A stretch of DNA of 12,457 nt from Paracoccaceae bacterium. Lineage in GTDB: Bacteria; Pseudomonadota; Alphaproteobacteria; Rhodobacterales; Rhodobacteraceae. The DNA lies in contig DQCI01000192.1 in the NCBI GenBank assembly GCA_003545125.1, positions 14,440-26,896 of the forward strand, read 5' to 3'. This document shows, piece by piece, positions 1-12,216 of the stretch (positions are counted from its first letter, which is position 1; each line of letters begins with the position of its first letter). Below the pieces are notes generated by a model. The model saw nothing but the letters and a program-made list of their open reading frames with translations, ran no database searches and was not told the DNA's origin. A program made the position numbers and the translations under genes.

Positions 1-776
1 AAAAGCTGCCGGTAGACGCGGCACAGGTCGGAAAAGCCGGTGGCCTGTGGAGACAGGCGCACCGCATCAATGCCAATCCGGGACAGCGTTTCGACCTGAT
101 ATGCGCTGCAAGCGTAGCTCTCGGACAGGGTCTGCACGCCGTTCATCGCCAGAAACGGCTGGCCGTCCATGGTGTGGACCTCCAGACCGTCGGGGTCTTG
201 CTCGCAGGCAAACTGGCAATTGTCCTTCGACCGGCCGTGCAGGCGCGCGTGGTAGCAGCGCCCGGAAATTGCCAGCGGCAGACGGCCGTGGCCCCAAACT
301 TCGACCGCAACGCCCAGATCACGAGCGGCCGCGGCAAGGGTCTTGACCGAAGCCAGCGGCAATTCGGGCGGCAGGCAGACCCGGGTCGCCCCGCGTGACG
401 CCAGCCAGGCCAGCGTGCCTTCGTTGTAGACATTGATCAGGGGACCGACGAAAAACTCCATGCCGTCAGGCAGATAGGTCAGCGCAGTCAGGTCGTTGAT
501 CTCGACTGTCGCACCCAATTCGGCCAGCTCGGCGGTCATCTTGCGCTCGCGTTTCAGGGTGACAAGAGCCAGGCTTGTCAGCGCGACCTGCTTGCCGGCT
601 GCCAACAGGGTCGAGATCGCGCCGGGTATCTGGGCCTGATAGAAGGGCAGGCGCTTGGAGCAGACCAGCTCGCCCAAAATGACCCGGTCGACCGGGCTGT
701 CGGCAAGCGTGTCATAGAGTGCCGACCAACGCTCGGGCGTCCAGAAAAACACGTTGGGGCCGACGGTCAGCTGCAT
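1..776 (-). CDS. ubiV: UbiV, O2-independent ubiquinone hydroxylation subunit (U32 family), 3' end cut by window edge
   Basis: UbiV acts with UbiU and UbiT in the cytosol to hydroxylate ubiquinone precursors without O2. The frame is open from an ATG at 776-774 to the window edge (258 complete codons; E. coli UbiV has about 290 residues), so the C-terminus is missing. The protein begins MQLTVGPNVFFW. Cysteines at residues 39, 174, 187 and 191 match the spacing of the four 4Fe-4S ligands known in E. coli UbiV (C39, C180, C193, C197), so the cluster site looks intact. The GLEVHTMDG and RLSPQATG stretches also fit U32 proteins of this group. The start lies 5 bp after the ubiU stop, with a GGAGG ribosome binding site embedded in the last ubiU codons about 8 nt upstream, so this is one operon. 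Such genes are often annotated 'peptidase U32', but a protease role is not supported. Family assignment is very likely. Confidence 0.93.
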   Translation of the reverse strand, partial: MQLTVGPNVFFWTPERWSALYDTLADSPVDRVILGELVCSKRLPFYQAQIPGAISTLLAAGKQVALTSLALVTLKRERKMTAELAELGATVEINDLTALTYLPDGMEFFVGPLINVYNEGTLAWLASRGATRVCLPPELPLASVKTLAAAARDLGVAVEVWGHGRLPLAISGRCYHARLHGRSKDNCQFACEQDPDGLEVHTMDGQPFLAMNGVQTLSESYACSAYQVETLSRIGIDAVRLSPQATGFSDLCRVYRQL

Positions 777-781
777 TGCCG

Positions 782-1759
782 CTACCTCCATGTCTTCTTG
801 TAGGCGCCCGCCGTCGTGGCCTGCCCCTCGGACAGGCGCGCGAGCATGCCCTCGGGCATCGGTTGGCCCGCCTCCAGCGCATCGACCGCCGCACGGAAAT
901 TGCGCACGACCTCGGCGACATAGGCGCGCGAGCGTTGCCGGCCCTCGATCTTGAGCGCGGTGACACCGGCCTTGGCGAGCTGCGGGATCAGGTGTTCGGC
1001 GTTCAGGCTGACCGGATCCGCGAACAGATGCCCGGTCTTGTCGCCGGTGCTGAAACACCCCTTGCACAACGTCGGGTAGGGCGCCGGTTCGCCCTGGCCC
1101 ACCTGGTGGATCGTGTAGCCGCCGAGCCGGGCATTGAGCGCCCCGGAATCTTCGTGGTATTCGACATGGCTCGCGGGCGAGCACACGCCGTTCATGTTGG
1201 GCGACAGCCCGGTCGCATAGGACGACAGCGAACAGCGCCCCTCCGCCATCACGCACAGGCCGCCGAACACGAAGACCTCGGTTTCCACCTCGGTTTCGGC
1301 ATTGATCGTGGCGATCTCGGGCACCGACAGGACGCGCGGAAGGACCACCCGCTTCACACCGAAGGCCTGCGCGTAGAAATTGATGATATCCGCGTTGGCC
1401 GCGGCGGCCTGGACCGAAAGGTGGCGGCGCAATCCCGGATGGTGCTTCGCGGCATGATCCAGCAGCCCCGGATCGGCCAGGATGACGGCATCGGTCCCGG
1501 CGGTCTCGGCGTCCGCCACGGCGCGGTGCCAGATCGCTTCGGCCCCGGCGCGAGGATAGGTGTTGATCGCGACCAGCACCTTGGCGCCGTTGGCATGGGC
1601 AAAGGCAATGCCATCTCGCATCTCGGCCCGGTCGAAATTCAACCCGGGGAAATTGCGGGCATTGGTTTCATCGGCATAGCCGCAATAGACGGTATGCGCT
1701 CCGGCCTTTACCGCCGCGCGCAAGGACGCAGGCGTGCCGGCCGGGCAAACGATTTCCAT
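782..1759 (-). CDS. ubiU: UbiU, O2-independent ubiquinone hydroxylation subunit (U32 family)
   Basis: UbiU forms a heterodimer with UbiV and is needed for anaerobic hydroxylation of ubiquinone precursors (family knowledge). The protein has 325 residues from the chosen start (E. coli about 331) and begins MEIVCPAGTP, the usual UbiU N-terminus. Numbered from this start, cysteines fall at 169, 176, 193 and 232, exactly the positions of the E. coli 4Fe-4S ligands, in GGLCVMAEGRCSLSSY, NGVCSPA and TLCKGC. This agreement argues against the longer frame that opens at 1795. The ATG overlaps the ubiT stop as TGATG, which points to translational coupling. A GAGGAG lies about 14 nt upstream, so GTG codons at 1765 or 1762 are possible alternative starts giving one or two extra residues. 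The middle gene of the ubiTUV operon; no defect is seen. Confidence 0.95.
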   Translation of the reverse strand: MEIVCPAGTPASLRAAVKAGAHTVYCGYADETNARNFPGLNFDRAEMRDGIAFAHANGAKVLVAINTYPRAGAEAIWHRAVADAETAGTDAVILADPGLLDHAAKHHPGLRRHLSVQAAAANADIINFYAQAFGVKRVVLPRVLSVPEIATINAETEVETEVFVFGGLCVMAEGRCSLSSYATGLSPNMNGVCSPASHVEYHEDSGALNARLGGYTIHQVGQGEPAPYPTLCKGCFSTGDKTGHLFADPVSLNAEHLIPQLAKAGVTALKIEGRQRSRAYVAEVVRNFRAAVDALEAGQPMPEGMLARLSEGQATTAGAYKKTWR

Positions 1760-2286
1760 CACCACGCCATCGTCTCCTCGCGGCGCGACAGACACACCCC
1801 GGTTCTGCGTTCCACCACGGCGGCTATGCGCCGGACCGCCCCGGCGAACGGCCCCGACATCGCGGCGACTTCGCCGGAAATGTCCAATTCGGCGTCATCG
1901 ACGGCATTGCGCAAGGCCAGGGCGGCGGCGGTATCGCCCTCGATCACCAGATCGCGCGAAAAAAACAGAGCGTCGCCGTCATAGGCCCCGTTGACCAGCC
2001 CCAAGAGTGCGGCCAGCGACCCCGCGATCCGCGCATCGCCGGTGACAGGCCCGCGTGTCGCGCTAACCCGCGGCACACCGCCGTTGGGCTCAAGGCAAAG
2101 GCTGATCGGCAGGTCGGTCGGATCAAGCACAAACCGGGCATGCGCGTGTTCGCCGAGCCGGCGAAAGAGACCTGGGTGTTGTTTGGCCAGCCTGCGTGCG
2201 TAGGTGGTCAACGACACCGAGATCGGCGCCAGCGGCGCGATACGTAACAACCGTGCGAGCGTCGGCGGGAACAACGGAAGTGACAT
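1759..2286 (-). CDS. ubiT: UbiT, SCP2-domain lipid-binding accessory factor of anaerobic ubiquinone synthesis
   Basis: UbiT (YhbT-like) carries an SCP2 sterol-carrier fold and is thought to bind the hydrophobic quinone intermediates and present them to UbiU/UbiV. From the ATG at 2286 the protein has 175 residues (E. coli 174) and begins MSLPLFPPTLARLLRIAPLAPI, a typical hydrophobic N-terminus. The family signature DGDALFFSRDLVIEGDTAAA sits at about residues 103-122. The frame opens earlier with a GTG at 2343, but the predicted transcript start near 2341 would exclude it. There is no good ribosome binding site before the ATG. An AAGGAA lies 6 nt before an in-frame TTG at 2301, which could be the true start and would add five residues. 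First gene of the ubiTUV operon, preceded by an FNR-type box. Confidence 0.9.
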   Translation of the reverse strand: MSLPLFPPTLARLLRIAPLAPISVSLTTYARRLAKQHPGLFRRLGEHAHARFVLDPTDLPISLCLEPNGGVPRVSATRGPVTGDARIAGSLAALLGLVNGAYDGDALFFSRDLVIEGDTAAALALRNAVDDAELDISGEVAAMSGPFAGAVRRIAAVVERRTGVCLSRREETMAW

Positions 2287-2373
2287 CGGGGACTGGGGCA
2301 AGTGCAGTTCCTTTCCGGGCGTCGTTGACAACGCGGTTCGCACGCACTTGGTATGGGCCGCCGACAGAAGACG

Positions 2374-2391
2374 AATTGACGATCGTCAATT
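2374..2391. promoter_or_regulatory. FNR/FnrL-type operator in the divergent ubiT/ubiD promoter region
   Basis: AATTGACGATCGTCAATT is a perfect 18-bp palindrome containing TTGAC-N4-GTCAA, a match to the FNR/FnrL half-site TTGAY. It lies between the divergent ubiTUV and ubiDX operons with its centre at 2382.5. If FNR bound at -41.5 in each direction, transcripts would start near 2341 (minus) and 2424 (plus). Weak -10-like hexamers are then seen at 2353-2348 (TACCAA, minus) and 2412-2417 (TAGGCG, plus), and both gene starts fall shortly downstream. Anaerobic activation of both operons is inferred. A Dnr/NnrR-type CRP-family regulator could use the same site. Confidence 0.8.
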
Positions 2392-2439
2392 TGCCGGGGC
2401 ATTTTTTCTGGTAGGCGCAAAGCGACACTCACCGGAGAG

Positions 2440-2519
2440 ATGCCGTTCGCGACCTCCCCTCATATCCCAGCCTACGCAGCTTCCTCGACAGGTGCCGGGA
2501 AACCGGCCAGTTCAAAGCC
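2440..2519 (+). other. ubiD: Displaced N-terminal coding segment of ubiD (apparent frameshift after the ATG)
   Basis: The frame of ubiD continues upstream of 2520 to a TAG at 2412 and encodes SYPSLRSFLDRCRETGQFKA just before the GTG. This matches the N-terminal helix of UbiD proteins (E. coli: YNDLRDFLTLLEQQGELKR). That stretch contains no ATG, GTG or TTG. The expected start, an ATG at 2440 preceded by CGGAGAG and about 16 nt from the inferred transcript start, is in another frame. One extra base right after the ATG (for example CCC instead of CC at 2443) would join ATG and ubiD into one open frame. The sequence therefore suggests a one-base deletion, either real or a sequencing error. Confidence 0.7.
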
Positions 2520-3953
2520 GTGCCTGATCCGGTTTCGGTCCGGCACCAGATCACCGCCGTACATCGGGCAGTGCTGGAGACGGGCGGGCCGGTTCTGCGC
2601 TTCGACCGGCCGATCCTCGACAGCGGCGAAGCGGCGGAGATGGCGGTGGTGGTCAACCTGTTCGGCAGTACCGAGCGGGTCGCCGCGGGGCTGGGGATAG
2701 GCCTCGACAAGCTCGATGACCTCGGCGCTTTCCTTGCCTCCCTGCGCACACCGACCCCGCCAGACGGGCTCCGCGACGCCTTGTCGCGCTGGCCGATGCT
2801 GAAAGCGGCCCTGACAACCCGTCCCAAGATCACGAAACACCCGCCGGCGCACCAGGTTGTGCGGGAAGGCGCGCAGGTTGATCTTGGCCAGATACCGGTT
2901 CAGACCCATTGGCCGGGCGACGCCGGGCCGCTGATCACCTGGCCTGTGGTGTTGACCCGGCCACATGGCACGGCCGCCGGGGACGTGGGCCAGTACAATG
3001 CTGGCGTCTACCGCGCCCAGGTGATCGGGCGCGACAAGGTGATCCTGCGCTGGCTGCCGCAACGGGGCGGGTCCGCTCATCACCGAAGCTGGGCGCGTCA
3101 CGGTGAGAAAGCCCCGGTCGCAATCGTGCTCGGGGCCGACCCGGCAACGCTGCTTTCGGCCGCCCTGCCGCTGCCCGAAACAATCTCCGAGCTGACCTTC
3201 GCGGGGGCGCTCGCTGGCACGCGGCCGCGGCTCGCCCCGGCCAAAACCGTGCCGCTATTGGTCCCGGCAGAGGCCGAGATCATCCTGGAGGGCTGGGTTT
3301 CGCCGACCGGGACCGCGCCCGAAGGTCCGTTCGGCGACCACACCGGCTATTACAACCCGGCCGAACCCTTTCCGGTCATGCAGATCACCGCGATGACCCA
3401 CCGGCAGGGGCCGCTGTATCTGTCGACCTATACCGGCCGGCCGCCCGACGAACCGGCGATCATCGGTGAGGTCTTCAACAGGCTTGCCTTGCCGACGATC
3501 CGTGCCCAGATCCCGGAGATACGCGACCTCTGGTTGCCGCCGGCGGCCTGTTCCTACCGCATGGCCGTGGTCAGCATCGACAAGCAATACCCCGGCCAGG
3601 CCCGCCGCGTGATGATGGCGTTGTGGGGGATGCTGCCGCAGTTCAGCTACACCAAGATGATCGTGGTGGTGGACGACGATATCGACCCGGCGAACTGGGA
3701 TGATATCGCCTGGGCGCTGGCCACACGTATGGACCCCGCCCGCGACGTGATGCTGTTGGAGAACACCCCGATGGACTATCTCGACTTCGCCTCGCCCCGG
3801 CCGGGATTGGCCGGCAAGATGGGCATTGATGCGACCACCAAGATCGAAAGCGAGACCACTCGCGCATGGGGCGAGGTGATGGAAACGGCCCCGGAAGACG
3901 CCGCCTTCGCCGCCGACCTGTTGTCTCGCCTCTTCACAGAGCGCCCGTCATGA
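2520..3953 (+). CDS. ubiD: UbiD, prenylated-FMN-dependent 3-polyprenyl-4-hydroxybenzoate decarboxylase
   Basis: UbiD removes the carboxyl group of 3-polyprenyl-4-hydroxybenzoate in ubiquinone synthesis, using the prenyl-FMN made by UbiX, the next gene. The open frame from GTG 2520 gives 477 residues; E. coli UbiD has about 497. Family motifs seen in order are VNLFGSTERVA (45-55), GPLITWPVVLTRP (136-148), NAGVYR (160-165, cofactor/metal region), RWLPQRGG (177-184), the acidic pair E268 and D273 in APEGPFGDHTGYYN, TYTGRPPDEPA, and near the end DPARDVMLLENTPMDYLDFASP. The core and C-terminus look complete. The GTG start has no clear ribosome binding site and lacks the N-terminal helix, which is encoded just upstream in the same frame without a start codon. 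Translation from ATG 2440 would need a frameshift. The stop overlaps ubiX as ATGA. Confidence 0.92.
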   Translation: MPDPVSVRHQITAVHRAVLETGGPVLRFDRPILDSGEAAEMAVVVNLFGSTERVAAGLGIGLDKLDDLGAFLASLRTPTPPDGLRDALSRWPMLKAALTTRPKITKHPPAHQVVREGAQVDLGQIPVQTHWPGDAGPLITWPVVLTRPHGTAAGDVGQYNAGVYRAQVIGRDKVILRWLPQRGGSAHHRSWARHGEKAPVAIVLGADPATLLSAALPLPETISELTFAGALAGTRPRLAPAKTVPLLVPAEAEIILEGWVSPTGTAPEGPFGDHTGYYNPAEPFPVMQITAMTHRQGPLYLSTYTGRPPDEPAIIGEVFNRLALPTIRAQIPEIRDLWLPPAACSYRMAVVSIDKQYPGQARRVMMALWGMLPQFSYTKMIVVVDDDIDPANWDDIAWALATRMDPARDVMLLENTPMDYLDFASPRPGLAGKMGIDATTKIESETTRAWGEVMETAPEDAAFAADLLSRLFTERPS

Positions 3954-4516
3954 GGGTCGCGCGCGTCGTGCTGGGCGTCGCCGGGGCCTCGGGAGCCGCC
4001 TTGGGCATCTCGGTGGCACGCCAACTGGCAGATCTCCGGGCCGAAATCGACCTGGTCACCAGCTCCGCCGCCGAACGGACCCTGTCGGAGGAATGCGGAC
4101 CGGACGCGCTCGCGGACCTGCGACGGCTCGCCACCAGAACCCACCCGATCGGCGATATCGGGGCCAGCATCGCCTCGGGCTCGGTGCCTTTGTCCGGCAT
4201 GATCGTCGCCCCTTGCTCGATGCGCAGCCTGGCGGCCATCGCCAACGGCCTCGACGACAACCTGCTGACCCGCGCGGCCGGCGTGCAACTCAAGGAACGT
4301 CGTCGCCTGGTGCTGCTGACCCGCGAAGCACCGCTGACGCTGGCGCATTTGAAGAACATGACCGCCGCCACCGAACTGGGCGCCATCATCCTGCCCCCGG
4401 TTCCGGCGTTCTACTTGCATCCGCGGTCGGTGTCGGAGATCACCGATCAGATCGCCGCCCGCGCGATCGACCTGCTCGCAATCGCCGATCCGGCTGCGCA
4501 GAGCTGGGCCGGCTAG
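3950..4516 (+). CDS. ubiX: UbiX, flavin prenyltransferase
   Basis: UbiX joins a dimethylallyl group to FMN to make the prenyl-FMN cofactor of UbiD. From the ATG at 3950 the protein has 188 residues (E. coli 189) and begins MRVARVVLGVAGASGAALG, the flavoprotein family N-terminus. S14 lies in GASGA, E47/E48 in LSEEC, and R108, K115, R125 and Y155 in TRAAGVQLKERR, LTREAP and PPVPAFY. These correspond to the catalytic and phosphate-binding residues described for Pseudomonas UbiX, with R, K, R and Y at a constant offset. The start overlaps the ubiD stop (ATGA), so the two are translationally coupled. The frame opens earlier, at 3866, but the extra N-terminus is low-complexity and lies inside ubiD. 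No obvious terminator follows. Confidence 0.95.
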   Translation: MRVARVVLGVAGASGAALGISVARQLADLRAEIDLVTSSAAERTLSEECGPDALADLRRLATRTHPIGDIGASIASGSVPLSGMIVAPCSMRSLAAIANGLDDNLLTRAAGVQLKERRRLVLLTREAPLTLAHLKNMTAATELGAIILPPVPAFYLHPRSVSEITDQIAARAIDLLAIADPAAQSWAG

Positions 4517-4940
4517 ATCGCTCCTCCCAAGGAACGGGGCGAAACCGGTCCACGCCTCTGGAAAAACCCCTGACACATTCGTTTTCCATTTGGCCTGAAC
4601 GGTTCAATTGGGCCGGAACCCCGTGGTCGACCGCAGTCTGGGTCGCCACGCTCTTGGGTACCTCTGGGATGGAAATGCTGCGCGGTGAAGCAAAGGTGTC
4701 TCTGGAGTGCCGCGACGCGGCATTGTAAAGCGTCGCGAACGACCGCAATGGGATGTCGTCGATCCGTTTGCTTGCTGACGGCGCAAAACACCAATATCTA
4801 AACCGCAGTAGGTTTGGGCTCGGAGCCGTCATTCGAGACATCGGACTTCAACGGCCGCTTTTGTGAGATTTAGATTATGGCGGCACCTTTGCCGCTCGTA
4901 CTTTGAGTCCGAGACCCGAAGAACGGCGAGCAGTCGCCAA
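4517..4940. other. Intergenic stretch between ubiX and the integrase, no gene recognised
   Basis: No frame here shows a recognisable protein, a coding start with a ribosome binding site, or a tRNA. A small perfect inverted repeat, TGCCGC-GAC-GCGGCA, lies at 4708-4722. A weak hairpin GGCGA-GCAG-TCGCC at 4925-4938 sits just beyond the integrase stop and is followed on the minus strand by GTTCTT, so it could end integrase transcription. The stretch contains neither a copy of the tRNA-Lys 3' end found at 6302-6348 nor an intact tRNA, so no element boundary can be placed in it. Confidence 0.6.
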
Positions 4941-6230
4941 CTATGCTCCATTGCTCACGAGCCGCACAACAGGCGGGTCCTCGTCACTCACGATCGACGT
5001 GACCATGTTGGCCCAAGCCTCCAGCGCGCGGCGCTTCTCGGCCGCGTAGTCGTGCCGCTGGTAGACCGACACGATCCCGGCGGTTGTGCCGCTCACGTGG
5101 TTGAGGACGGCCTCTGTGACGGGAATGGGAATGCCTAGCCGGGCAATCCCCGTCGCTGCCGTGCGCCGCAGGTCGTGGGGCGTCCATCGCTCAAGCTCAC
5201 GCCCCGCAAGCGCGTTCATCTCGGCGCGGATCCTGCCGAAGCCCTTGGTCCAGCCGTTTATCGGCACCCGGCCGTTGGTGGTCAGGACGTAGCTGCCATT
5301 GCGCTCGACGCCCGACAAGACGGCCATCGAGGCGCTCGACAGGGGCACGCCGTGGGCGCGGCCATTCTTGCTTCGCTCGGCCGGCAGGCGGAGGGTATCG
5401 CCTTCGAGCTCCGCCCACTCCATCCGGGCGATCTCGTTCAGCCGCTGGCCGGTGAGAAGCAACAGCTGCCCGCAGCTGCCGTAGGGGTAGCCAACCCTGG
5501 TGCAGGCCTCCCAGAACCAGCCGACCTCCTCGTCGGACAGGACACGCTCCCGCGGCCGTTCGTGGTACTTCTCGACGCCGGCGGCGGGGTTGTCGGCCCG
5601 CCACCCATGCCGCATGGAGAGGGAGAACAGCTTGGACGCCAAGGCTAGCGTGCGGTTCGCCTCGTAGGGCGTCGAGCCCAGCGAGCGGTGGAGCTTCACC
5701 ATGTCGTCGTGGTTCACGTCCTTGACCCTGACCTTGCCGAGCCGCGCCCAGCCCAAGATGTGCCGCTCGATCCTCCTCCGATCTTCCGCCCCAGTCTTCT
5801 TGTTGACAGCGTGCTTGGCGAGAAAGCCGGAGCACAGGTCGGCCACTGTCGGCAGCTCCCCCGCCGCCCTCTGCGTGCGCGCCGGGTCTTCGCCGTTCTT
5901 GCCACGGATCTTCCAGTCGCGTGCAATCTCGCGTGCCTGGTCGGGCGTCAGGTCTGAAGCCGAGCCGAGGGTGGGCTTGCGGGCGAGTGCTGCCCTTCCC
6001 CGGCCGATGCGATACTTCAGAATGTAGCTGCGGTGGCCGCTGGGGGTAACGCGCAGGCCAAGTCCGGGGACGGCCTCATCCCACCAAACGACTTCGCGAT
6101 CGCCGGGCTCGACGTTGGCGACGAAGGTCTTGGTCAGCTTGACGCGGTTCCTGATTGCGAGCTCCCTTCGAATGGTTGAGGTACCACGGAGGTACCACAT
6201 TTTGTTGGTGTCAGTTGAAACTGCGATCAA
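4941..6230 (-). CDS. Tyrosine-type site-specific integrase (P4/DUF4102 family)
   Basis: A phage/island integrase that recombines an element into a chromosomal att site. The protein has 429 residues from TTG 6230. An N-terminal arm-type DNA-binding (DUF4102-like) domain covers about 30-115 (KLTKTFVANV, VPGLGLRVTPSGHRSYILKYR). A core-binding domain covers about 125-220, and a catalytic domain about 230-410. The active-site set appears complete: R263 in LLTGQRLNEIARMEW, K288 in ERSKNGRAH, H352 and R355 in TPHDLRRTAAT, H378 in LNHVSG, and nucleophile Y390 in VYQRHDY. The start is uncertain: TTG 6230 has an AGGG upstream, ATG 6200 has none, and no ATG/GTG/TTG occurs between 6200 and the conserved KLTKTFV. 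Its 5' end lies about 70 bp from a tRNA-Lys 3' fragment, so tRNA-Lys is the likely target. No excisionase gene is seen beside it. Confidence 0.93.
   Translation of the reverse strand: MIAVSTDTNKMWYLRGTSTIRRELAIRNRVKLTKTFVANVEPGDREVVWWDEAVPGLGLRVTPSGHRSYILKYRIGRGRAALARKPTLGSASDLTPDQAREIARDWKIRGKNGEDPARTQRAAGELPTVADLCSGFLAKHAVNKKTGAEDRRRIERHILGWARLGKVRVKDVNHDDMVKLHRSLGSTPYEANRTLALASKLFSLSMRHGWRADNPAAGVEKYHERPRERVLSDEEVGWFWEACTRVGYPYGSCGQLLLLTGQRLNEIARMEWAELEGDTLRLPAERSKNGRAHGVPLSSASMAVLSGVERNGSYVLTTNGRVPINGWTKGFGRIRAEMNALAGRELERWTPHDLRRTAATGIARLGIPIPVTEAVLNHVSGTTAGIVSVYQRHDYAAEKRRALEAWANMVTSIVSDEDPPVVRLVSNGA
6178..6198. repeat. Tandem 10-bp direct repeat at the 5' end of the integrase gene
   Basis: GAGGTACCAC occurs at 6178-6187 and again at 6189-6198, an 11-bp period of about one helical turn. 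The repeat overlaps the first codons of the integrase frame, about 100 bp from the tRNA fragment. Arm-type integrase sites or an autoregulatory operator are possible, but nothing in the sequence proves either. Confidence 0.5.
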
Positions 6231-6301
6231 CTCTGGACCCTAGAGCTATGAAAATATGGAGTTTGTTGATGTGGATTTTAACAGGAGAACTCAGACTATA
6301 G
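6231..6301. promoter_or_regulatory. AT-rich leader between integrase and tRNA fragment (att flank and likely int promoter)
   Basis: This 71-bp stretch is clearly richer in A and T than the surrounding sequence. It must hold the integrase promoter if the gene starts at 6230 or 6200, and it forms the element-side flank of the presumed crossover site. On the minus strand AT-rich hexamers such as TTAAAA and CATATT are present, but no convincing -35/-10 pair can be named. The expected 5' half of tRNA-Lys is absent here. Confidence 0.4.
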
Positions 6302-6348
6302 GACTTTTAATCAGTGGGTCGCAGGTTCGAATCCTGCACGGCTCACCA
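6302..6348 (+). other. attachment site: 3' 47 nt of tRNA-Lys(UUU) without its 5' half
   Basis: The stretch reads as the end of a tRNA: GA before the anticodon loop CTTTTAA (anticodon TTT), TCAGT as the 3' strand of the anticodon stem, variable loop GGGTC, T arm GCAGG-TTCGAAT-CCTGC, acceptor strand ACGGCTC, discriminator A, and an encoded CCA at 6346-6348. The 5' side is missing: the acceptor partner GAGCCGT should start near 6273 but does not, no D arm is present, and only the two base pairs next to the loop can form in the anticodon stem. Together with the adjacent integrase this is best read as an att site, with the intact tRNA-Lys at the other end of the element. Confidence 0.85.
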
Positions 6349-6356
6349 CTCACTCC

Positions 6357-6386
6357 AAGGGCTTGGCCGGGACCGGCTGAGCCCTT
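6357..6386 (+). terminator. Strong hairpin after the tRNA-Lys 3' end
   Basis: AAGGGCTTGGCCGG at 6357-6370 and CCGGCTGAGCCCTT at 6373-6386 form a long stem with two G-T wobbles and a very short loop; the innermost pairs are probably open. It begins 8 nt after the CCA, where a tRNA transcript would end. No clean T-tract follows (GTGGGTTTAG), so it is only a likely terminator. It could also protect the 3' end of the convergent amylosucrase transcript. Confidence 0.45.
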
Positions 6387-6439
6387 GTGGGTTTAGGGGC
6401 CTGTGTGTTTTCAGGATAGTGCGCGACCCGTTTTCCCGG

Positions 6440-8332
6440 TCAGACAACCCAGGCCCGTGCATAGGGCGGCAGGGCGACGCCGCCGTCGGGGCTGTGGATC
6501 GGGGCGTCGGACAGCAGGTCATAGAGCCGCGTGACACCCTGGTTTGCGAACCAGGAGGCGGGCAGGCCGGTCCAGCTTTCGGTGAAATTGAAGACGCAAA
6601 CCACGGGCCCGGTCGGGGCGCGGCGCGCGATGGCGAACACGCCATCTCGCCCGGTGTCGAGCACCTCGGTCGGGACCGCGCCGTGAAACCCGGGAACGGC
6701 GGCCCGGCGCGCGAGGATGTGGCGGATCCCCTCATAGACGCGTGCGTGCGGTGTGTCGCGGTTGGCGCGGAGCTCGGCGACACGGGTCCAGTCCATCATG
6801 GGCCGGTGAATCCAGCGGCTGTCATGGGCGTGTTCGGGAACCTGGGTGTAGCCATAGTCGTTCAGAGCCGCGATCTCGTCGCCCATGTAGATGAGCGGAA
6901 TGCCACCCCAGGCGGCGATCAGCGAGTGACCCATGAGGATCCGGTCGATGGCGGTGTCGATCTCGTGGCCGTCGCCGCTTTCAAGCGCCAGTTCGAGCCC
7001 GGCGAGGGAGGCGGTGGAGCCGGATACACGTTTGTCGCCGGTGGTCTCGTTCACCTGGAACAGCGCGCCGCGGGCGAAACTGCCGGGAAAGATGCCGTCG
7101 TAGAAATCCGACAGGAAGGTGCGGTGACCGAACCCGGAGATGCCGACGGCGCCAGCGTCTTGATCGGTGACCGCCCAGCCGATGTCGTCATGGCAGCGCA
7201 GGTAGGTGGCGTAGGTGGCGTTCGCCACAGACGGCGGGAAATGTGCGCGTATCACATGGCTCATCAGGCCCACGTCGCGCGATGCCAGCGACGACCAGAA
7301 CTGGACCATCAGCGAATTGTGGTAGGCGAGGTTGCCTTCCTTGCCGGCGTGTATCCCGCGGCCGAGATAGGGGATCATCTCGGCGGGGCCGACGATCGCC
7401 TCTTCGAGGTGGATCACGGCGGGCGCGGCGATCCTCGTGGCGGCCCGCAGCGCGTGCAGCAGCACATGCACTTCCGGCTCCGACTGGCAACGGGTGCCCA
7501 TGCGTTTCCACAGGAAGGCCGGTGCGTCGAGGCGCAGGATGTCGACCCCCTTGTTGGCGAGGAACAGCATCACCCGGGTCATTTCGAGAAACACCTGCGG
7601 GTTGGACCAGTTCAGATCCCACTGGTGTTCGTTGAACGTGGTCCAGACCCAGCGGTCCATGTCCTGATAATAGGTGAAATTGCCGGGCGCGTTGGCGGGG
7701 AAAATCTCGACGAGGGTCGATTCGTAGGCCTTGGGCAGCATGTCGTCGGGGAACATGAAGTAGTAGTCACGAAAGCGCCCGTTGCCGGCGCGGGCCTTCT
7801 GCGCCCATTCGTGCTCCTTGGCGGTGTGGTTGACCACAAGGTCGATGCAGACCGACATGCCGCGCGCGTGGCAGGCGGCCGTGGTGGCCTCGAGGTCGTC
7901 CATCGTGCCGAGCGTGGGATTGACCTCGGTGTAGTCCATCACCGAATAGCCGCCGTCGCTGTCGCCGGGCCGGGGCTTCAGGCAGGGCATGAAGTGCAGG
8001 TAGGTGATGCCGAGGTCTTCGAGGTAGTCGAGCTTGTCGGGCACCTTGTCGAGCGTGCCGGCGAAACGGTCGATGTAGAACACGTAGCCGTTCATGCCGG
8101 GGCGCTGGAACCAGTCGGGCTCGAGGTCGCGTTCCATGTCGCGCCATTTGAGCCTGTCGGGGCGATCCTCCCAGAAGCCGCGCAGGGTTGCGATCAGGTC
8201 CTCGCTGAAGCGGTCATAGTCGGGCCGGTGGCCGTAGAGGCGCTCCAGCATGCCGAACAGGTCCGCGCGCGAGCGTTCCAAACGCATTTCGAACAGGCGT
8301 GCGTTGAAATCGCGCGGCGTGGTTTTCGGCAT
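6440..8332 (-). CDS. Amylosucrase (GH13 subfamily 4)
   Basis: Amylosucrase transfers glucose from sucrose to an alpha-1,4-glucan and releases fructose. The chosen ATG at 8332 gives 630 residues (Neisseria polysaccharea enzyme about 630) and has GGAGGG 5 nt upstream. The frame opens further back at 8521, but that extension shows no family similarity. Seen in order are SDGGYSVMDY (125-134), IDLVVNHTAKEHEWA (163-177), RLDAPAFLWKRMGT with nucleophile D269, HLEEAIVGP with acid/base E311, YLRCHDDIGW (378-386) with the transition-state Asp at about 382, and DSRWIHRP, which holds the sugar-binding Arg of this subfamily. NHTAKEHEW and FLWKRMGT favour GH13_4 over trehalose synthase. The close relative sucrose hydrolase is the main alternative. 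It lies 195 bp behind the SMP-30 gene and near the glycogen genes, so it may feed sucrose glucose into glycogen-like glucan. Confidence 0.9.
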   Translation of the reverse strand: MPKTTPRDFNARLFEMRLERSRADLFGMLERLYGHRPDYDRFSEDLIATLRGFWEDRPDRLKWRDMERDLEPDWFQRPGMNGYVFYIDRFAGTLDKVPDKLDYLEDLGITYLHFMPCLKPRPGDSDGGYSVMDYTEVNPTLGTMDDLEATTAACHARGMSVCIDLVVNHTAKEHEWAQKARAGNGRFRDYYFMFPDDMLPKAYESTLVEIFPANAPGNFTYYQDMDRWVWTTFNEHQWDLNWSNPQVFLEMTRVMLFLANKGVDILRLDAPAFLWKRMGTRCQSEPEVHVLLHALRAATRIAAPAVIHLEEAIVGPAEMIPYLGRGIHAGKEGNLAYHNSLMVQFWSSLASRDVGLMSHVIRAHFPPSVANATYATYLRCHDDIGWAVTDQDAGAVGISGFGHRTFLSDFYDGIFPGSFARGALFQVNETTGDKRVSGSTASLAGLELALESGDGHEIDTAIDRILMGHSLIAAWGGIPLIYMGDEIAALNDYGYTQVPEHAHDSRWIHRPMMDWTRVAELRANRDTPHARVYEGIRHILARRAAVPGFHGAVPTEVLDTGRDGVFAIARRAPTGPVVCVFNFTESWTGLPASWFANQGVTRLYDLLSDAPIHSPDGGVALPPYARAWVV

Positions 8333-8416
8333 GTGTCCCTCCATCTTGGGCGCGAGGAAACAGCGGGCGGCGGTTGGAATGCAACCGGAAACCGCAGTTG
8401 CGCGGCGATCGGTCCA

Positions 8417-8431
8417 GAGCGTTTCGCGCTC
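8417..8431. promoter_or_regulatory. Inverted repeat GAGCG-N5-CGCTC, possible operator upstream of amylosucrase
   Basis: GAGCG-TTTCG-CGCTC lies about 85 bp upstream of the amylosucrase start. It contains AGCG-N5-CGCT, the same architecture as the repeat at 8514-8528, and the AGCGTTT motif seen at other points around the SMP-30 gene. A regulator site, perhaps of the LacI family, is inferred. A small RNA hairpin is the alternative. Confidence 0.35.
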
Positions 8432-8513
8432 AATCGCCCCCACCGGCCGTCGCGAACGTGTTGTGCTCTGCAAACGCTGCTTCGCGACGGCCAGCGAGGA
8501 CATGGCGCCCATC

Positions 8514-8528
8514 AAGCGCAAAACGCTT
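8514..8528. promoter_or_regulatory. Inverted repeat AAGCG-N5-CGCTT at the end of the SMP-30 gene
   Basis: AAGCG-CAAAA-CGCTT overlaps the first base of the SMP-30 stop codon as read on the plus strand and lies about 180 bp upstream of amylosucrase. It shares AGCG-N5-CGCT with the repeat at 8417-8431, 97 bp away. It could be a second operator, or a short hairpin at the end of the SMP-30 transcript. Confidence 0.35.
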
Positions 8529-9385
8529 CAGAGGCGCACCCGCGGTTCCGGCCGGCCCGGCGCGCCTGCGGGCACGGTGAAGACCTGCCCTGCCAGCGGA
8601 TCCCCGGCGAGGCCGTCGGCGTCGTAGCCTTCCTGCGCGGTGGTGACGAAGAGCGTGTCGAGGTCGGTGCCGCCCAACGCCGGGCAGGAGGCCTTTTTTG
8701 CGCCCACCGGGACGGCGTGGAGGAAGCTGCCGTCGGGCGCATGCACCGCGACCCGCCCGGCCCCCCATTGCGCGATCCAGAGGTTGCCTGCCGCGTCGGT
8801 CACCGCGCCGTCTGGAACCAGACCATCCTTGGACAGGTCAATCAGCACGCTCGGCGCGCCTTCGGGCCAGCCGTTCGCGCCGAGTGGCTGGGCCATGACC
8901 TTGCGCGTTGGCGAGTCGGTGAAATAGGCCGTGCGCCCGTCCGGCGCGAAGCAGATCGCGTTGGGAATGGTGATGCCGGGGAAGATGCGGCGCACCTGGC
9001 CTTCGTAGAAACGATAGATCGCACCCGCCTGCGGTTCGGCATGTCGGCCCATGGTGCCGATCCAGAACCCGCCATGCGGGTCGGCGCGACCGTCGTTGGA
9101 GCGGGTTACCATGTTGTCGGCTTCGAGCGGCACGACTTCCCGGGCCGCCTCGGTCTCGAGGTCGAACAGGAACAGCGAGGTTTCGGAGGCGATCAGCAGG
9201 CGTGTGCGGTCGACCCAGCCCGCCGCCGAGACCATCTCGGTGAAGCTCCACTCGCGCGCCCTGTCGCCGTCGCGCGCCAGGAGTTTGCCGGCCGTTATGT
9301 CGAACCAGAACAGCTGGCCGCGCTCGGGGTGCCAGAGCGGGCCTTCGCCGAGGATGCAGGGTCTGGCGTCGAAAACCTGGGTCAT
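8528..9385 (-). CDS. SMP-30/gluconolactonase/LRE family sugar-lactone hydrolase
   Basis: A 285-residue six-bladed beta-propeller enzyme of the SMP-30 family, which usually hydrolyses aldonolactones with a divalent metal. E14 in CILGEGPLWHP, N142 in GITIPNAICFAPDG and D192 in GLVPDGAVTD match the metal ligands known in human SMP30 (E18, N154, D204). R95 and N97 in TRSNDGRADPHGGFWIGTM match its substrate-binding Arg and Asn. No signal peptide is seen, so it should be cytosolic. The ATG at 9385 has AAAGGA about 7 nt upstream. It is followed after 195 bp by amylosucrase on the same strand and is divergent from glgP. The natural substrate cannot be read from the sequence; a lactone of glucose, galactose or arabinose is possible. 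Confidence 0.88.
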   Translation of the reverse strand: MTQVFDARPCILGEGPLWHPERGQLFWFDITAGKLLARDGDRAREWSFTEMVSAAGWVDRTRLLIASETSLFLFDLETEAAREVVPLEADNMVTRSNDGRADPHGGFWIGTMGRHAEPQAGAIYRFYEGQVRRIFPGITIPNAICFAPDGRTAYFTDSPTRKVMAQPLGANGWPEGAPSVLIDLSKDGLVPDGAVTDAAGNLWIAQWGAGRVAVHAPDGSFLHAVPVGAKKASCPALGGTDLDTLFVTTAQEGYDADGLAGDPLAGQVFTVPAGAPGRPEPRVRL

Positions 9386-9813
9386 TCGGGATCCTTTCGC
9401 GCGGCGTCAGCCGATTCGTTTGCGCTCACATTAGCGCGTGGAAACGCTGCTGGCGCGGTGTCGGGAGCCGGTGCGAACCGGGATTTTTCGCGATTTTGAT
9501 GTCACAAAACCGCGTCCAAAGCGTTTTGACCCCTTTTCCTCAAGGGTATCGGTACCTAGTTTTTGCCTGCGTCGAAAAGGGCGCCAAAGAAGAATGAGCC
9601 GAGCCCGCCGTTATTGTTTCCGAATTAGCCGAAAGCCACGCATTGGACCCGTTTTCGCCCGAAATATCGGCTACGGGATGTGCGACCCCGCGGGCAAGGA
9701 TGCCCGCTGGCGGATGGGCGCGAGCGTCGGAAAACCGGTGAGGCAGAGTGGACTACGAGGCCCGATAGCGCTAGCAGCTGCCGGGATTGTCGCTGACGAG
9801 GAGAATCGACGCG
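9386..9813. promoter_or_regulatory. Divergent SMP-30 / glgP intergenic region
   Basis: This 428-bp region has no supported gene. It must hold the SMP-30 promoter (minus) and the glgP promoter (plus). A TTGACC at 9525-9530 with TATCGG at 9547-9552 (16-bp spacing) is a weak plus-strand promoter candidate, and an operator-like sequence overlaps its -35. An AAACGCT copy lies at 9442-9448. A 6-bp stem hairpin GCGGGC/GCCCGC with a 6-nt loop at 9690-9707 would lie in a long glgP leader. The region just before glgP contains AGGAGA at 9799-9804 as its ribosome binding site. Confidence 0.5.
9517..9528. promoter_or_regulatory. LacI-type operator candidate CAAAGCGTTTTG
   Basis: CAAAGC-GTTTTG is a near-perfect palindrome (5 of 6 positions) centred on CG, the usual layout of LacI/GalR-family operators. 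It overlaps a TTGACC -35 candidate for glgP and contains AGCGTTT, also present at 8418, 8472, 8521 and 9442 (in either orientation) around the SMP-30 gene. No LacI-family regulator gene lies in the window, so the binding protein is unknown. Confidence 0.4.

Positions 9814-12216
<2,403 letters not shown>

What the first reader, a model, noticed from the sequence alone, without database searches (positions are those of the whole stretch)
1..6348. Anaerobic ubiquinone module as probable cargo of a tRNA-Lys-integrated element
An integrase with a complete active site lies next to a 47-nt 3' piece of tRNA-Lys(UUU) that lacks its 5' half. Such a piece is the distal att left when an element inserts in a tRNA gene; the intact, repaired tRNA is then at the other end. 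No intact tRNA-Lys or repeat of the piece occurs between ubiX and the integrase, so the element should continue leftwards over ubiX, ubiD and ubiTUV and past the window. This would make oxygen-independent ubiquinone synthesis a mobile trait here, plausibly moving with anaerobic respiration genes.
Basis: partly seen in the sequence, partly recalled or inferred. Interest (0 to 1): 0.72.

Follow-up and report, generated by a model that had tools for sequence, protein, structure and literature searches.

The report
Mobile island carrying oxygen-free ubiquinone synthesis
In this alphaproteobacterium the genes for making the respiratory molecule ubiquinone without oxygen sit inside a 20-kilobase DNA element that inserted itself into a lysine tRNA gene, so this ability may be gained as one package rather than only inherited.

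Summary
The window is C26:14440-26896 of a draft genome. An intact tRNA-Lys(UUU) lies 20.2 kb to the left, beside dapF; its 3' end matches the window fragment over 49 bp with two differences. These give the polarity: the window fragment has the form of the five genus mates with a readable copy, the intact tRNA a form that none of them has. A 21-bp double arm site occurs once inside each end and in none of 294 other family genomes (genus mates not sampled). ubiVUT and ubiDX are therefore cargo, with DUF2478, a Crp/Fnr-type regulator, a sulfatase module and a Tct transporter. No terminal reductase or transfer gene was found among the ORFs scanned. The site is a recurrent target: five other tRNA/att pairs show the same geometry with other cargo. 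In 394 family genomes UbiD tracks this ubiTUV type (43 of 45; 0 of 36 with only the other type), and an FNR-like box lies near the ubiT/ubiD gap in 63 of 75 loci. Present mobility and the source of the module are unproven.

The parts
3..776 (-). ubiV, 258 codons held; its 3' end runs into a 108-N scaffold gap left of the window (C26:14332-14439)
   Evidence: NCBIfam quinone_UbiV 324.9 bits, cut-off 275; gap
782..1795 (-). ubiU (ORF; likely start at 1759)
   Evidence: NCBIfam quinone_UbiU 504.2 bits, cut-off 440; Pfam U32
1759..2286 (-). ubiT (SCP2 domain; likely start at 2286, ORF open to 2343)
   Evidence: NCBIfam SCP2_dom_UbiT 73.3 bits, cut-off 46.9, scanned as 1759-2295
2376..2389 (.). FNR-like box TTGACGATCGTCAA in the divergent ubiT/ubiD promoter region
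   Evidence: only place matching TTGAYN4RTCAA in C26:1-20800; such a box in or within 120 bp of the ubiT/ubiD gap in 63 of 75 related loci tested
2520..3953 (+). ubiD
   Evidence: Pfam UbiD N, Rift and C domains; NCBIfam UbiD family 450.8 bits, cut-off 244.85, but below the PRK10922 equivalog cut-off
3950..4516 (+). ubiX (ORF from 3866; likely start at 3950, overlapping the ubiD stop)
   Evidence: NCBIfam UbiX family 212.8 bits, cut-off 188
4941..6230 (-). tyrosine integrase of the element (ORF from TTG 6230; likely true start near 6143, judged by relative P0005)
   Evidence: Pfam, PHROG integrase, relatives
6178..6198 (+). right double arm-type site GAGGTACCACGGAGGTACCAC; its left partner is C26:689-709
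   Evidence: binding is inferred
6302..6350 (+). distal att: 3' 47 nt of the native tRNA-Lys(UUU) plus 2 nt; left partner C26:572-620 in the intact tRNA (C26:543-618)
6356..6386 (+). hairpin, probably the native flank of tRNA-Lys; marks the chromosomal side of the right junction
   Evidence: fold z -3.33; similar flank directly behind intact tRNA-Lys in G005, G031, G227
6440..8521 (-). amylosucrase-like gene, first gene of the chromosome outside the element
   Evidence: Pfam; homologue in 6 of 6 genus mates

Best explanation
The region C26:about 572-20789 (window 1-6350 is its right third) is a 20.2-kb integrative element, a genomic island without recognised transfer genes. Its tyrosine integrase inserted a circular form into the 3' half of the tRNA-Lys(UUU) gene downstream of dapF. 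The element's att restored a complete tRNA at the left end, and the original 3' half was displaced to the right end next to the integrase. Its cargo includes a self-contained package for making ubiquinone without oxygen: UbiU/UbiV hydroxylases, UbiT, and the prenylated-flavin decarboxylase pair UbiD/UbiX, read divergently from an FNR-like box, with DUF2478 and a Crp/Fnr-type regulator behind. A second module (sulfatase, anaerobic sulfatase maturase, Tct transporter, LysR) is also cargo. Inferred: in this family the aerobic pathway can use the oxygen-dependent UbiN instead of UbiD, so the package supplies both oxygen-free steps at once and lets reductases encoded elsewhere in the host work without oxygen. 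Shown by sequence: boundaries, polarity, gene content, linkage. Inferred: circular form, excision, binding at the arm sites, function of the cargo, direction of transfer.
For: Intact tRNA-Lys at C26:543-618. att match of 49 bp with 2 differences, only two copies found in the own genome. Polarity: the five genus mates with a readable copy and 4 of 11 other intact copies printed have GCAGG/CCTGC like the window fragment; none of these 16 has the GTAGG/CCTAC of the left tRNA. The right flank aligns with the flank of intact tRNA-Lys in G005 (38 of 49), G031 (40 of 48) and G227 (35 of 47) far better than the left flank does. Arm site at both ends only: 2 matches in the own genome, 0 in 294 others. 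Same-site elements with an integrase beside the distal att: 5 of 5 pairs examined. Cargo. UbiX-D/T-U-V-DUF2478-Fnr in this order in L181, L182, L183 and L198, which bridges the 108-N gap. UbiD with the window type of UbiU in 43 of 45, with the other type alone in 0 of 36. R. capsulatus mutants lacking ubiD-X or ubiU-V fail only without oxygen (PMC10626278, passages).
Against: The scaffold has N gaps at C26:12295-12341 and 14332-14439; the first is not bridged by synteny. The hairpin flank is not seen behind tRNA-Lys in G001, G002, G003 and G006. Composition is not foreign (GC 0.643 against 0.649 to the right). The Ubi tree does not reject common descent with the same-genus G006 module (AU p 0.104). 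No exact empty site with amylosucrase was found. The arm site and integrase were not searched for in genus mates. The ORF next to attL is only part of a longer protein, so the element may be decaying. One draft genome only.
Confidence: 0.9

Rival explanations
1. The element is real, but the ubi package was already resident in this genus and was captured by the island locally, so no transfer from outside the genus took place.
For: Genus mate G006 has the same type of module at 84% UbiU identity in another place; holding window and G006 together is not rejected (AU p 0.104).
Against: In the best tree of five concatenated Ubi proteins the window groups with Maritimibacter fusiformis, not with G006 (support about 91, not starred). 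Concatenated identity to G006 is 76%, against up to 79% to other genomes. Mates G001 and G005 carry only the other ubiTUV type.
Confidence: 0.25
2. The island is a decayed, no longer mobile insertion; the ubi genes are now simply chromosomal.
For: No relaxase, type IV secretion or phage structural gene among the ORFs scanned; the attL-proximal ORF matches only the part from residue 274 on of a 725-residue relative; about 2 kb without clear genes around C26:10800-12860.
Against: Integrase ORF intact, att pair and both arm sites kept; many integrative elements move with help from others (recalled).
Confidence: 0.45
3. Left tRNA and right fragment belong to two different insertions or to a scaffolding error, so the ubi genes are not between partner att sites.
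For: N gaps in C26; tRNA-Lys is a recurrent target.
Against: Only two arm sites in the genome, one at each end and in the same orientation; no third att; the T-stem exchange fits one integration.
Confidence: 0.04

Closest known systems
Integrative elements/genomic islands inserted by tyrosine integrases into tRNA genes
   Same: tRNA target, att repeat, intact tRNA rebuilt at one end, integrase inside, arm-type repeats, metabolic cargo
   Different: Integrase sits at the distal att, not beside the intact tRNA (the same in the five other elements read at this site); no recognised replication or transfer gene; cargo is oxygen-independent ubiquinone synthesis, which the listings did not show on such an element
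ubiTUV (yhbTUV) O2-independent ubiquinone pathway
   Same: UbiT, UbiU and UbiV meet the NCBIfam equivalog cut-offs; FNR-like box
   Different: Joined with ubiDX in one divergent block and carried on an element; PMC11707229 (passages) describes ubiTUV as generally vertically inherited with one transfer event (Entomomonas moraniae)
ubiXDTUV set of Hyphomicrobium denitrificans (PMC12423496, passages)
   Same: ubiX, D, T, U and V in one set, co-regulated with denitrification; [quoted passage not shown]
   Different: No mobile element in the passages seen
Plasmid-borne ubiTUV-DX of Leisingera, Ruegeria, Paracoccus, Defluviimonas and others
   Same: UbiU and UbiD relatives adjacent on the same records (the top 20 records are the same 20); all five genes seen in the two records opened
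   Different: Plasmid, not tRNA-integrated; other neighbours, for example NnrS; both opened plasmids are typed non-mobilizable

Membership tests
tRNA-integrated element (tyrosine recombinase) | Direct att repeat, one copy within an intact tRNA gene, the other a 3' fragment | tested here: met
tRNA-integrated element (tyrosine recombinase) | Tyrosine integrase inside the element | tested here: met
   Pfam and PHROG
tRNA-integrated element (tyrosine recombinase) | Arm-type repeats near both ends | tested here: met
   Two matches in the own genome, none in 294 other family genomes; binding itself is inferred
tRNA-integrated element (tyrosine recombinase) | Empty site in relatives | tested here: inconclusive
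   dapF, intact tRNA-Lys and a similar hairpin in G005, G031, G227, not in four other genus mates; adjacency of tRNA-Lys to amylosucrase not found in the 6 genus mates
tRNA-integrated element (tyrosine recombinase) | Excision or circular form | not testable with these tools
   needs reads or PCR
Integrative and conjugative element (ICE) | Relaxase and type IV secretion genes | tested here: not met
   10 left-hand ORFs and 5 ubi/int ORFs scanned with Pfam show none; two of the ten have no family; shorter ORFs were mostly not scanned
Prophage | Phage structural or packaging genes | tested here: not met
   Of 7 ORFs scanned with PHROGs only the integrase matched; the other cargo is metabolic or regulatory
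O2-independent ubiquinone pathway (UbiTUV) | UbiT, UbiU and UbiV equivalogs over cut-off | tested here: met
Ubiquinone decarboxylase UbiD with UbiX | Equivalog for 4-hydroxy-3-polyprenylbenzoate decarboxylase | tested here: inconclusive
   UbiD family over cut-off, PRK10922 equivalog not (500 against 788); function of R. capsulatus ubiD-X is from the paper
FNR/FnrL oxygen sensor | Equivalog or subfamily cut-off | tested here: not met
   C26:12867-13652 best 67 bits against 228; a Crp/Fnr-type regulator only

The most novel reading that the evidence does not exclude
Ubiquinone synthesis without oxygen spreads through Rhodobacterales as one portable block (ubiDX joined to ubiTUV under an FNR-type promoter) on islands and plasmids. 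It supplies in one step both functions that the oxygen-dependent UbiN route lacks, and displaces the other ubiTUV type, so that anaerobic respiration capacity is partly a mobile trait of the quinone pool rather than of the reductases.
Probability: 0.4. Interest if true: 0.68.

Novelty: new member of a known kind. Interest (0 to 1): 0.52.

Why it matters
Published phylogenies treat ubiTUV as generally vertically inherited, with one transfer captured (PMC11707229, passages). Here the pathway is physically inside an integrated element, and its genes also sit together on plasmids of related bacteria. The tight link of UbiD to one ubiTUV type but not the other makes a testable question of which oxygen-free decarboxylase the other type uses; the UbiN authors note that some facultative anaerobes lack ubiD and might have another anaerobic decarboxylation system (PMC10626278, passages).

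Tried and rejected
A prophage or ICE reading was dropped because no such genes were found among the ORFs scanned. A denitrification island was dropped: no terminal reductase was found on the element, and the six molybdopterin-family genes found in the own genome lie on other contigs. Of the five that I named, three are TorA/BisC family (two over the BisC-family cut-off, one below), one is formate dehydrogenase and one is a weak match to several families; the sixth, on C229, was not examined. Foreign composition was looked for and not seen. The tree was meant to show import from outside the genus and does not prove it. The arm site was sought in viral contigs, 0 hits.

Limits of samples. The family samples hold the own genome and other genera, not the genus mates, so arm site and integrase were not sought in genus mates' genomes. 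The printed list is cut; among it I saw six pairs on one contig, read five and left out G069, whose two copies are 0.2 kb apart. Paper listings were cut (15 of 18, 10 of 12, 10 of 30 and 10 of 73 shown).

Correction made during the work: ARAGORN was fed wrongly and printed nothing, so the empty tRNA columns are void. The repeat with files found a tRNA in 6 of 84 related loci, none of them Lys. One search stopped on an error in its last line, after printing the DapF rows that I cite.

Not done: the neighbourhood of the 84% integrase relative P0005; UbiN in the own genome; structure prediction; further viral scans.
Full report
What is there. The window is G000:C26:14440-26896 of a 4.35-Mb, 343-contig, 89% complete draft. 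The window holds no complete tRNA. The piece at 6302-6348 is the 3' 47 nt of tRNA-Lys(UUU), and next to it lies a 429-codon integrase ORF with arm-binding and catalytic domains. ubiV, ubiU and ubiT read leftwards, ubiD and ubiX rightwards.

The missing end. A search of the own genome with window 6240-6400 gave two matches: the window itself and C26:572-620. There ARAGORN finds an intact tRNA-Lys(UUU) at 543-618. The ORF to its left, C26:1-369, reads as dapF (by eye); its homologues stand beside a tRNA-Lys in most of the relatives' loci tested. The two sites agree over 49 bp with two differences and part at once outside. No third copy with up to 18 differences over 46 bp exists in C26:1-27000. 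The element spans about 20.2 kb.

Polarity. The two differences form one base pair of the T-stem. The five genus mates with a readable tRNA-Lys(UUU) beside dapF (G001, G002, G003, G005, G006) have the window's version, as have 4 of 11 other intact copies printed; none of these 16 has the version of this genome's intact tRNA, in which the pairing is kept. In G004 the contig ends within the tRNA, so its 3' half cannot be read. The original 3' half is thus the window piece, and the element brought a new one. A hairpin follows the window piece (fold z -3.33). A similar flank directly follows intact tRNA-Lys beside dapF in same-genus G005 (38 of 49 positions alike) and in G031 (40 of 48) and G227 (35 of 47), and also follows it in G222 and G013 (35 of 47 each); the left flank aligns worse with these. 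Against this, the flanks in genus mates G001, G002, G003 and G006 resemble neither. G031 and G227 were the best matches after the own one in a search of 394 family genomes, of which 243 matched.

Arm sites. TGAGGTACCAC-C/G-GAGGTACCAC stands at C26:688-709 and 20616-20637, in the same orientation, about 70 bp inside the left end and about 100 bp inside the right end, just upstream of the probable integrase start. The 21-base pattern occurs twice in the own genome and in none of 294 other family genomes; genus mates were not in that sample. Binding by the integrase is inferred.

Same site elsewhere. Five genomes with two att matches on one contig, 9.7 to 34.7 kb apart (of six such pairs in the printed list; G069, 0.2 kb apart, left out), were read: in all five an intact tRNA-Lys stands next to dapF, and an integrase stands next to the distal att copy, as here; none shows a ubi gene at E <= 1e-10. 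So the site is a recurrent target, and this integrase position is usual for it.

Cargo, left to right in C26 coordinates: ORF 717-1079 and ORF 1102-2670 without families, the latter matching only the part from residue 274 on of a 725-residue relative; LysR 3761-4714; sulfatase 4803-6362 with a CxPxR motif (read by eye); TctC, B, A 6346-9407; anaerobic sulfatase maturase 9519-10796 (TIGR03942, 499 bits, cut-off 349); about 2 kb without clear genes, with a 47-N gap; Crp/Fnr-type regulator 12867-13652; DUF2478 13797-14327; a 108-N gap; ubiV, U, T; ubiD, X; integrase. The 108-N gap is bridged by synteny: of 84 related loci (82 distinct), 42 hold a DUF2478 relative and 28 a relative of the regulator within about 10 kb, in the same order as here in L181, L182, L183 and L198 among others; 81 hold UbiD and 77 UbiX. 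The 47-N gap is not bridged.

Two ubiTUV types. Among the 60 genomes, 16 have a UbiU-like match at E <= 1e-20. Near relatives fall into a window type (75-84% in G006, G022, G034, G016) and another type (53-55% in G001, G005, G009, G011, G013, G018, G025). In 394 family genomes, at E <= 1e-60, 45 have the window type, 37 the other, one both; UbiD at 65% or more is in 44. 43 of the 45 window-type genomes have UbiD, 42 of them within 2 kb and one at 3 kb; 0 of 36 genomes with only the other type have a UbiD match. Exceptions are G144 and G248 (window type, no UbiD found) and G019 (UbiD interrupted, no UbiU); six genomes with a more distant UbiD (51-54%) have no UbiU. An FNR-like box lies in or within 120 bp of the ubiT/ubiD gap in 63 of 75 loci that could be tested, against 106 boxes in all 1.44 Mb of those loci. 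Of the 6 genus mates only G006 has UbiD at E <= 1e-40; three of the others are less than 90% complete. In G006 the other-type UbiU is split over two frames, which may be an assembly fault.

Is it mobile more widely? In the plasmid collection 179 records match UbiU, 52 of them at 60% or more, and 150 match UbiD, 20 of them at 60% or more. The top 20 records of both lists are the same 20, with UbiU and UbiD side by side. A Leisingera caerulea plasmid of 70 kb carries ubiXD-TUV followed by NnrS; a Defluviimonas plasmid has a similar block; both are typed non-mobilizable. An integrase of this kind within 10 kb of the module was seen in 3 of 84 related loci (L196, L202 broken, L222 fragment), and a tRNA in 6 of 84, none Lys, so in the loci looked at the tRNA-Lys form is known from this genome alone. 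Close integrase relatives are few: 84% in one protein from an ENA source, then 59% and 56% (120 of 714 listed); 36-46% in 18 other genomes of 295 in the family sample; at most 38% on plasmids.

How it most likely works. Integration and tRNA repair follow from the sequence. Function of the package is inferred from families and papers. In R. capsulatus the flavin monooxygenase UbiN does decarboxylation and hydroxylation with oxygen, and mutants lacking ubiD-X or ubiU-V fail only without oxygen (PMC10626278, passages). In E. coli, strains lacking ubiD or ubiX made a limited amount of ubiquinone and only aerobically (PMC6747719, passages). In H. denitrificans a ubiXDTUV set is co-regulated with denitrification (PMC12423496, passages). 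The host shows no second UbiU at E <= 1e-20 or UbiD at 1e-40 in its incomplete draft, but has TorA/BisC-family reductases and a formate dehydrogenase on other contigs. The element would thus give the quinone supply to reductases already present.

Origin. In a tree of five concatenated Ubi proteins (80 rows, quick method) the window groups with Maritimibacter fusiformis, support about 91, not starred, and not with G006; a clade with G006 is not rejected (p 0.104). Import from outside the genus is plausible, not proven.

Prior work. PMC11707229 (passages) calls ubiTUV generally vertical, with one transfer captured, and reports FNR boxes. PMC13386864 (passages) reports a ubiquinone pathway outside Pseudomonadota. 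PMC10470549 (passages) covers UbiUVT in E. coli. PMC7713065 and PMC4741004 (passages) show Fnr-dependent ubiTUV in Sphingopyxis granuli with nar genes at nearby locus tags. The listings held no paper that I recognised, by title and abstract start, as describing ubiTUV on an integrative element; they cover only the held open-licence library, and some were cut.

Noticed in passing
L299-L304 (G128, G182, G297, G259, G411): Five other elements of about 10-35 kb inserted in the same dapF-side tRNA-Lys, each with an integrase at the distal att; cargo not studied beyond the absence of ubi matches.
   Followed up: partly
L059 (G006:C10:1167-2130): The other-type ubiU is split over two frames in a genome that also has a window-type module, as if one replaced the other; may be an assembly fault.
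   Followed up: partly
L196:14313-15572 and L202:13328-14225: Ruegeria arenilitoris strains carry an integrase about 1.5-2.5 kb beyond ubiV, one ORF in one strain and two pieces in the other, without a tRNA in the locus.
   Followed up: no
C26:4803-10796 (L003): Sulfatase, Tct transporter and anaerobic sulfatase maturase on the same element: a second cargo module that fits life without oxygen.
   Followed up: partly
C26:1102-2670 (L003): ORF beside attL with one distant homologue of 725 residues whose N-terminal part, with a GKGKT stretch, was not found here; possibly a remnant of the element's own replication gene.
   Followed up: partly
L062 (G016): The same ubiXD-TUV block is followed within 1 kb by genes that read like nosR and nosZ (by eye).
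   Followed up: no
window 6440-12216: Amylosucrase, gluconolactonase-like and glycogen phosphorylase genes; in genus mates the amylosucrase gene stands at different distances from tRNA-Lys (8 kb in G006, 28 kb in G005).
   Followed up: partly
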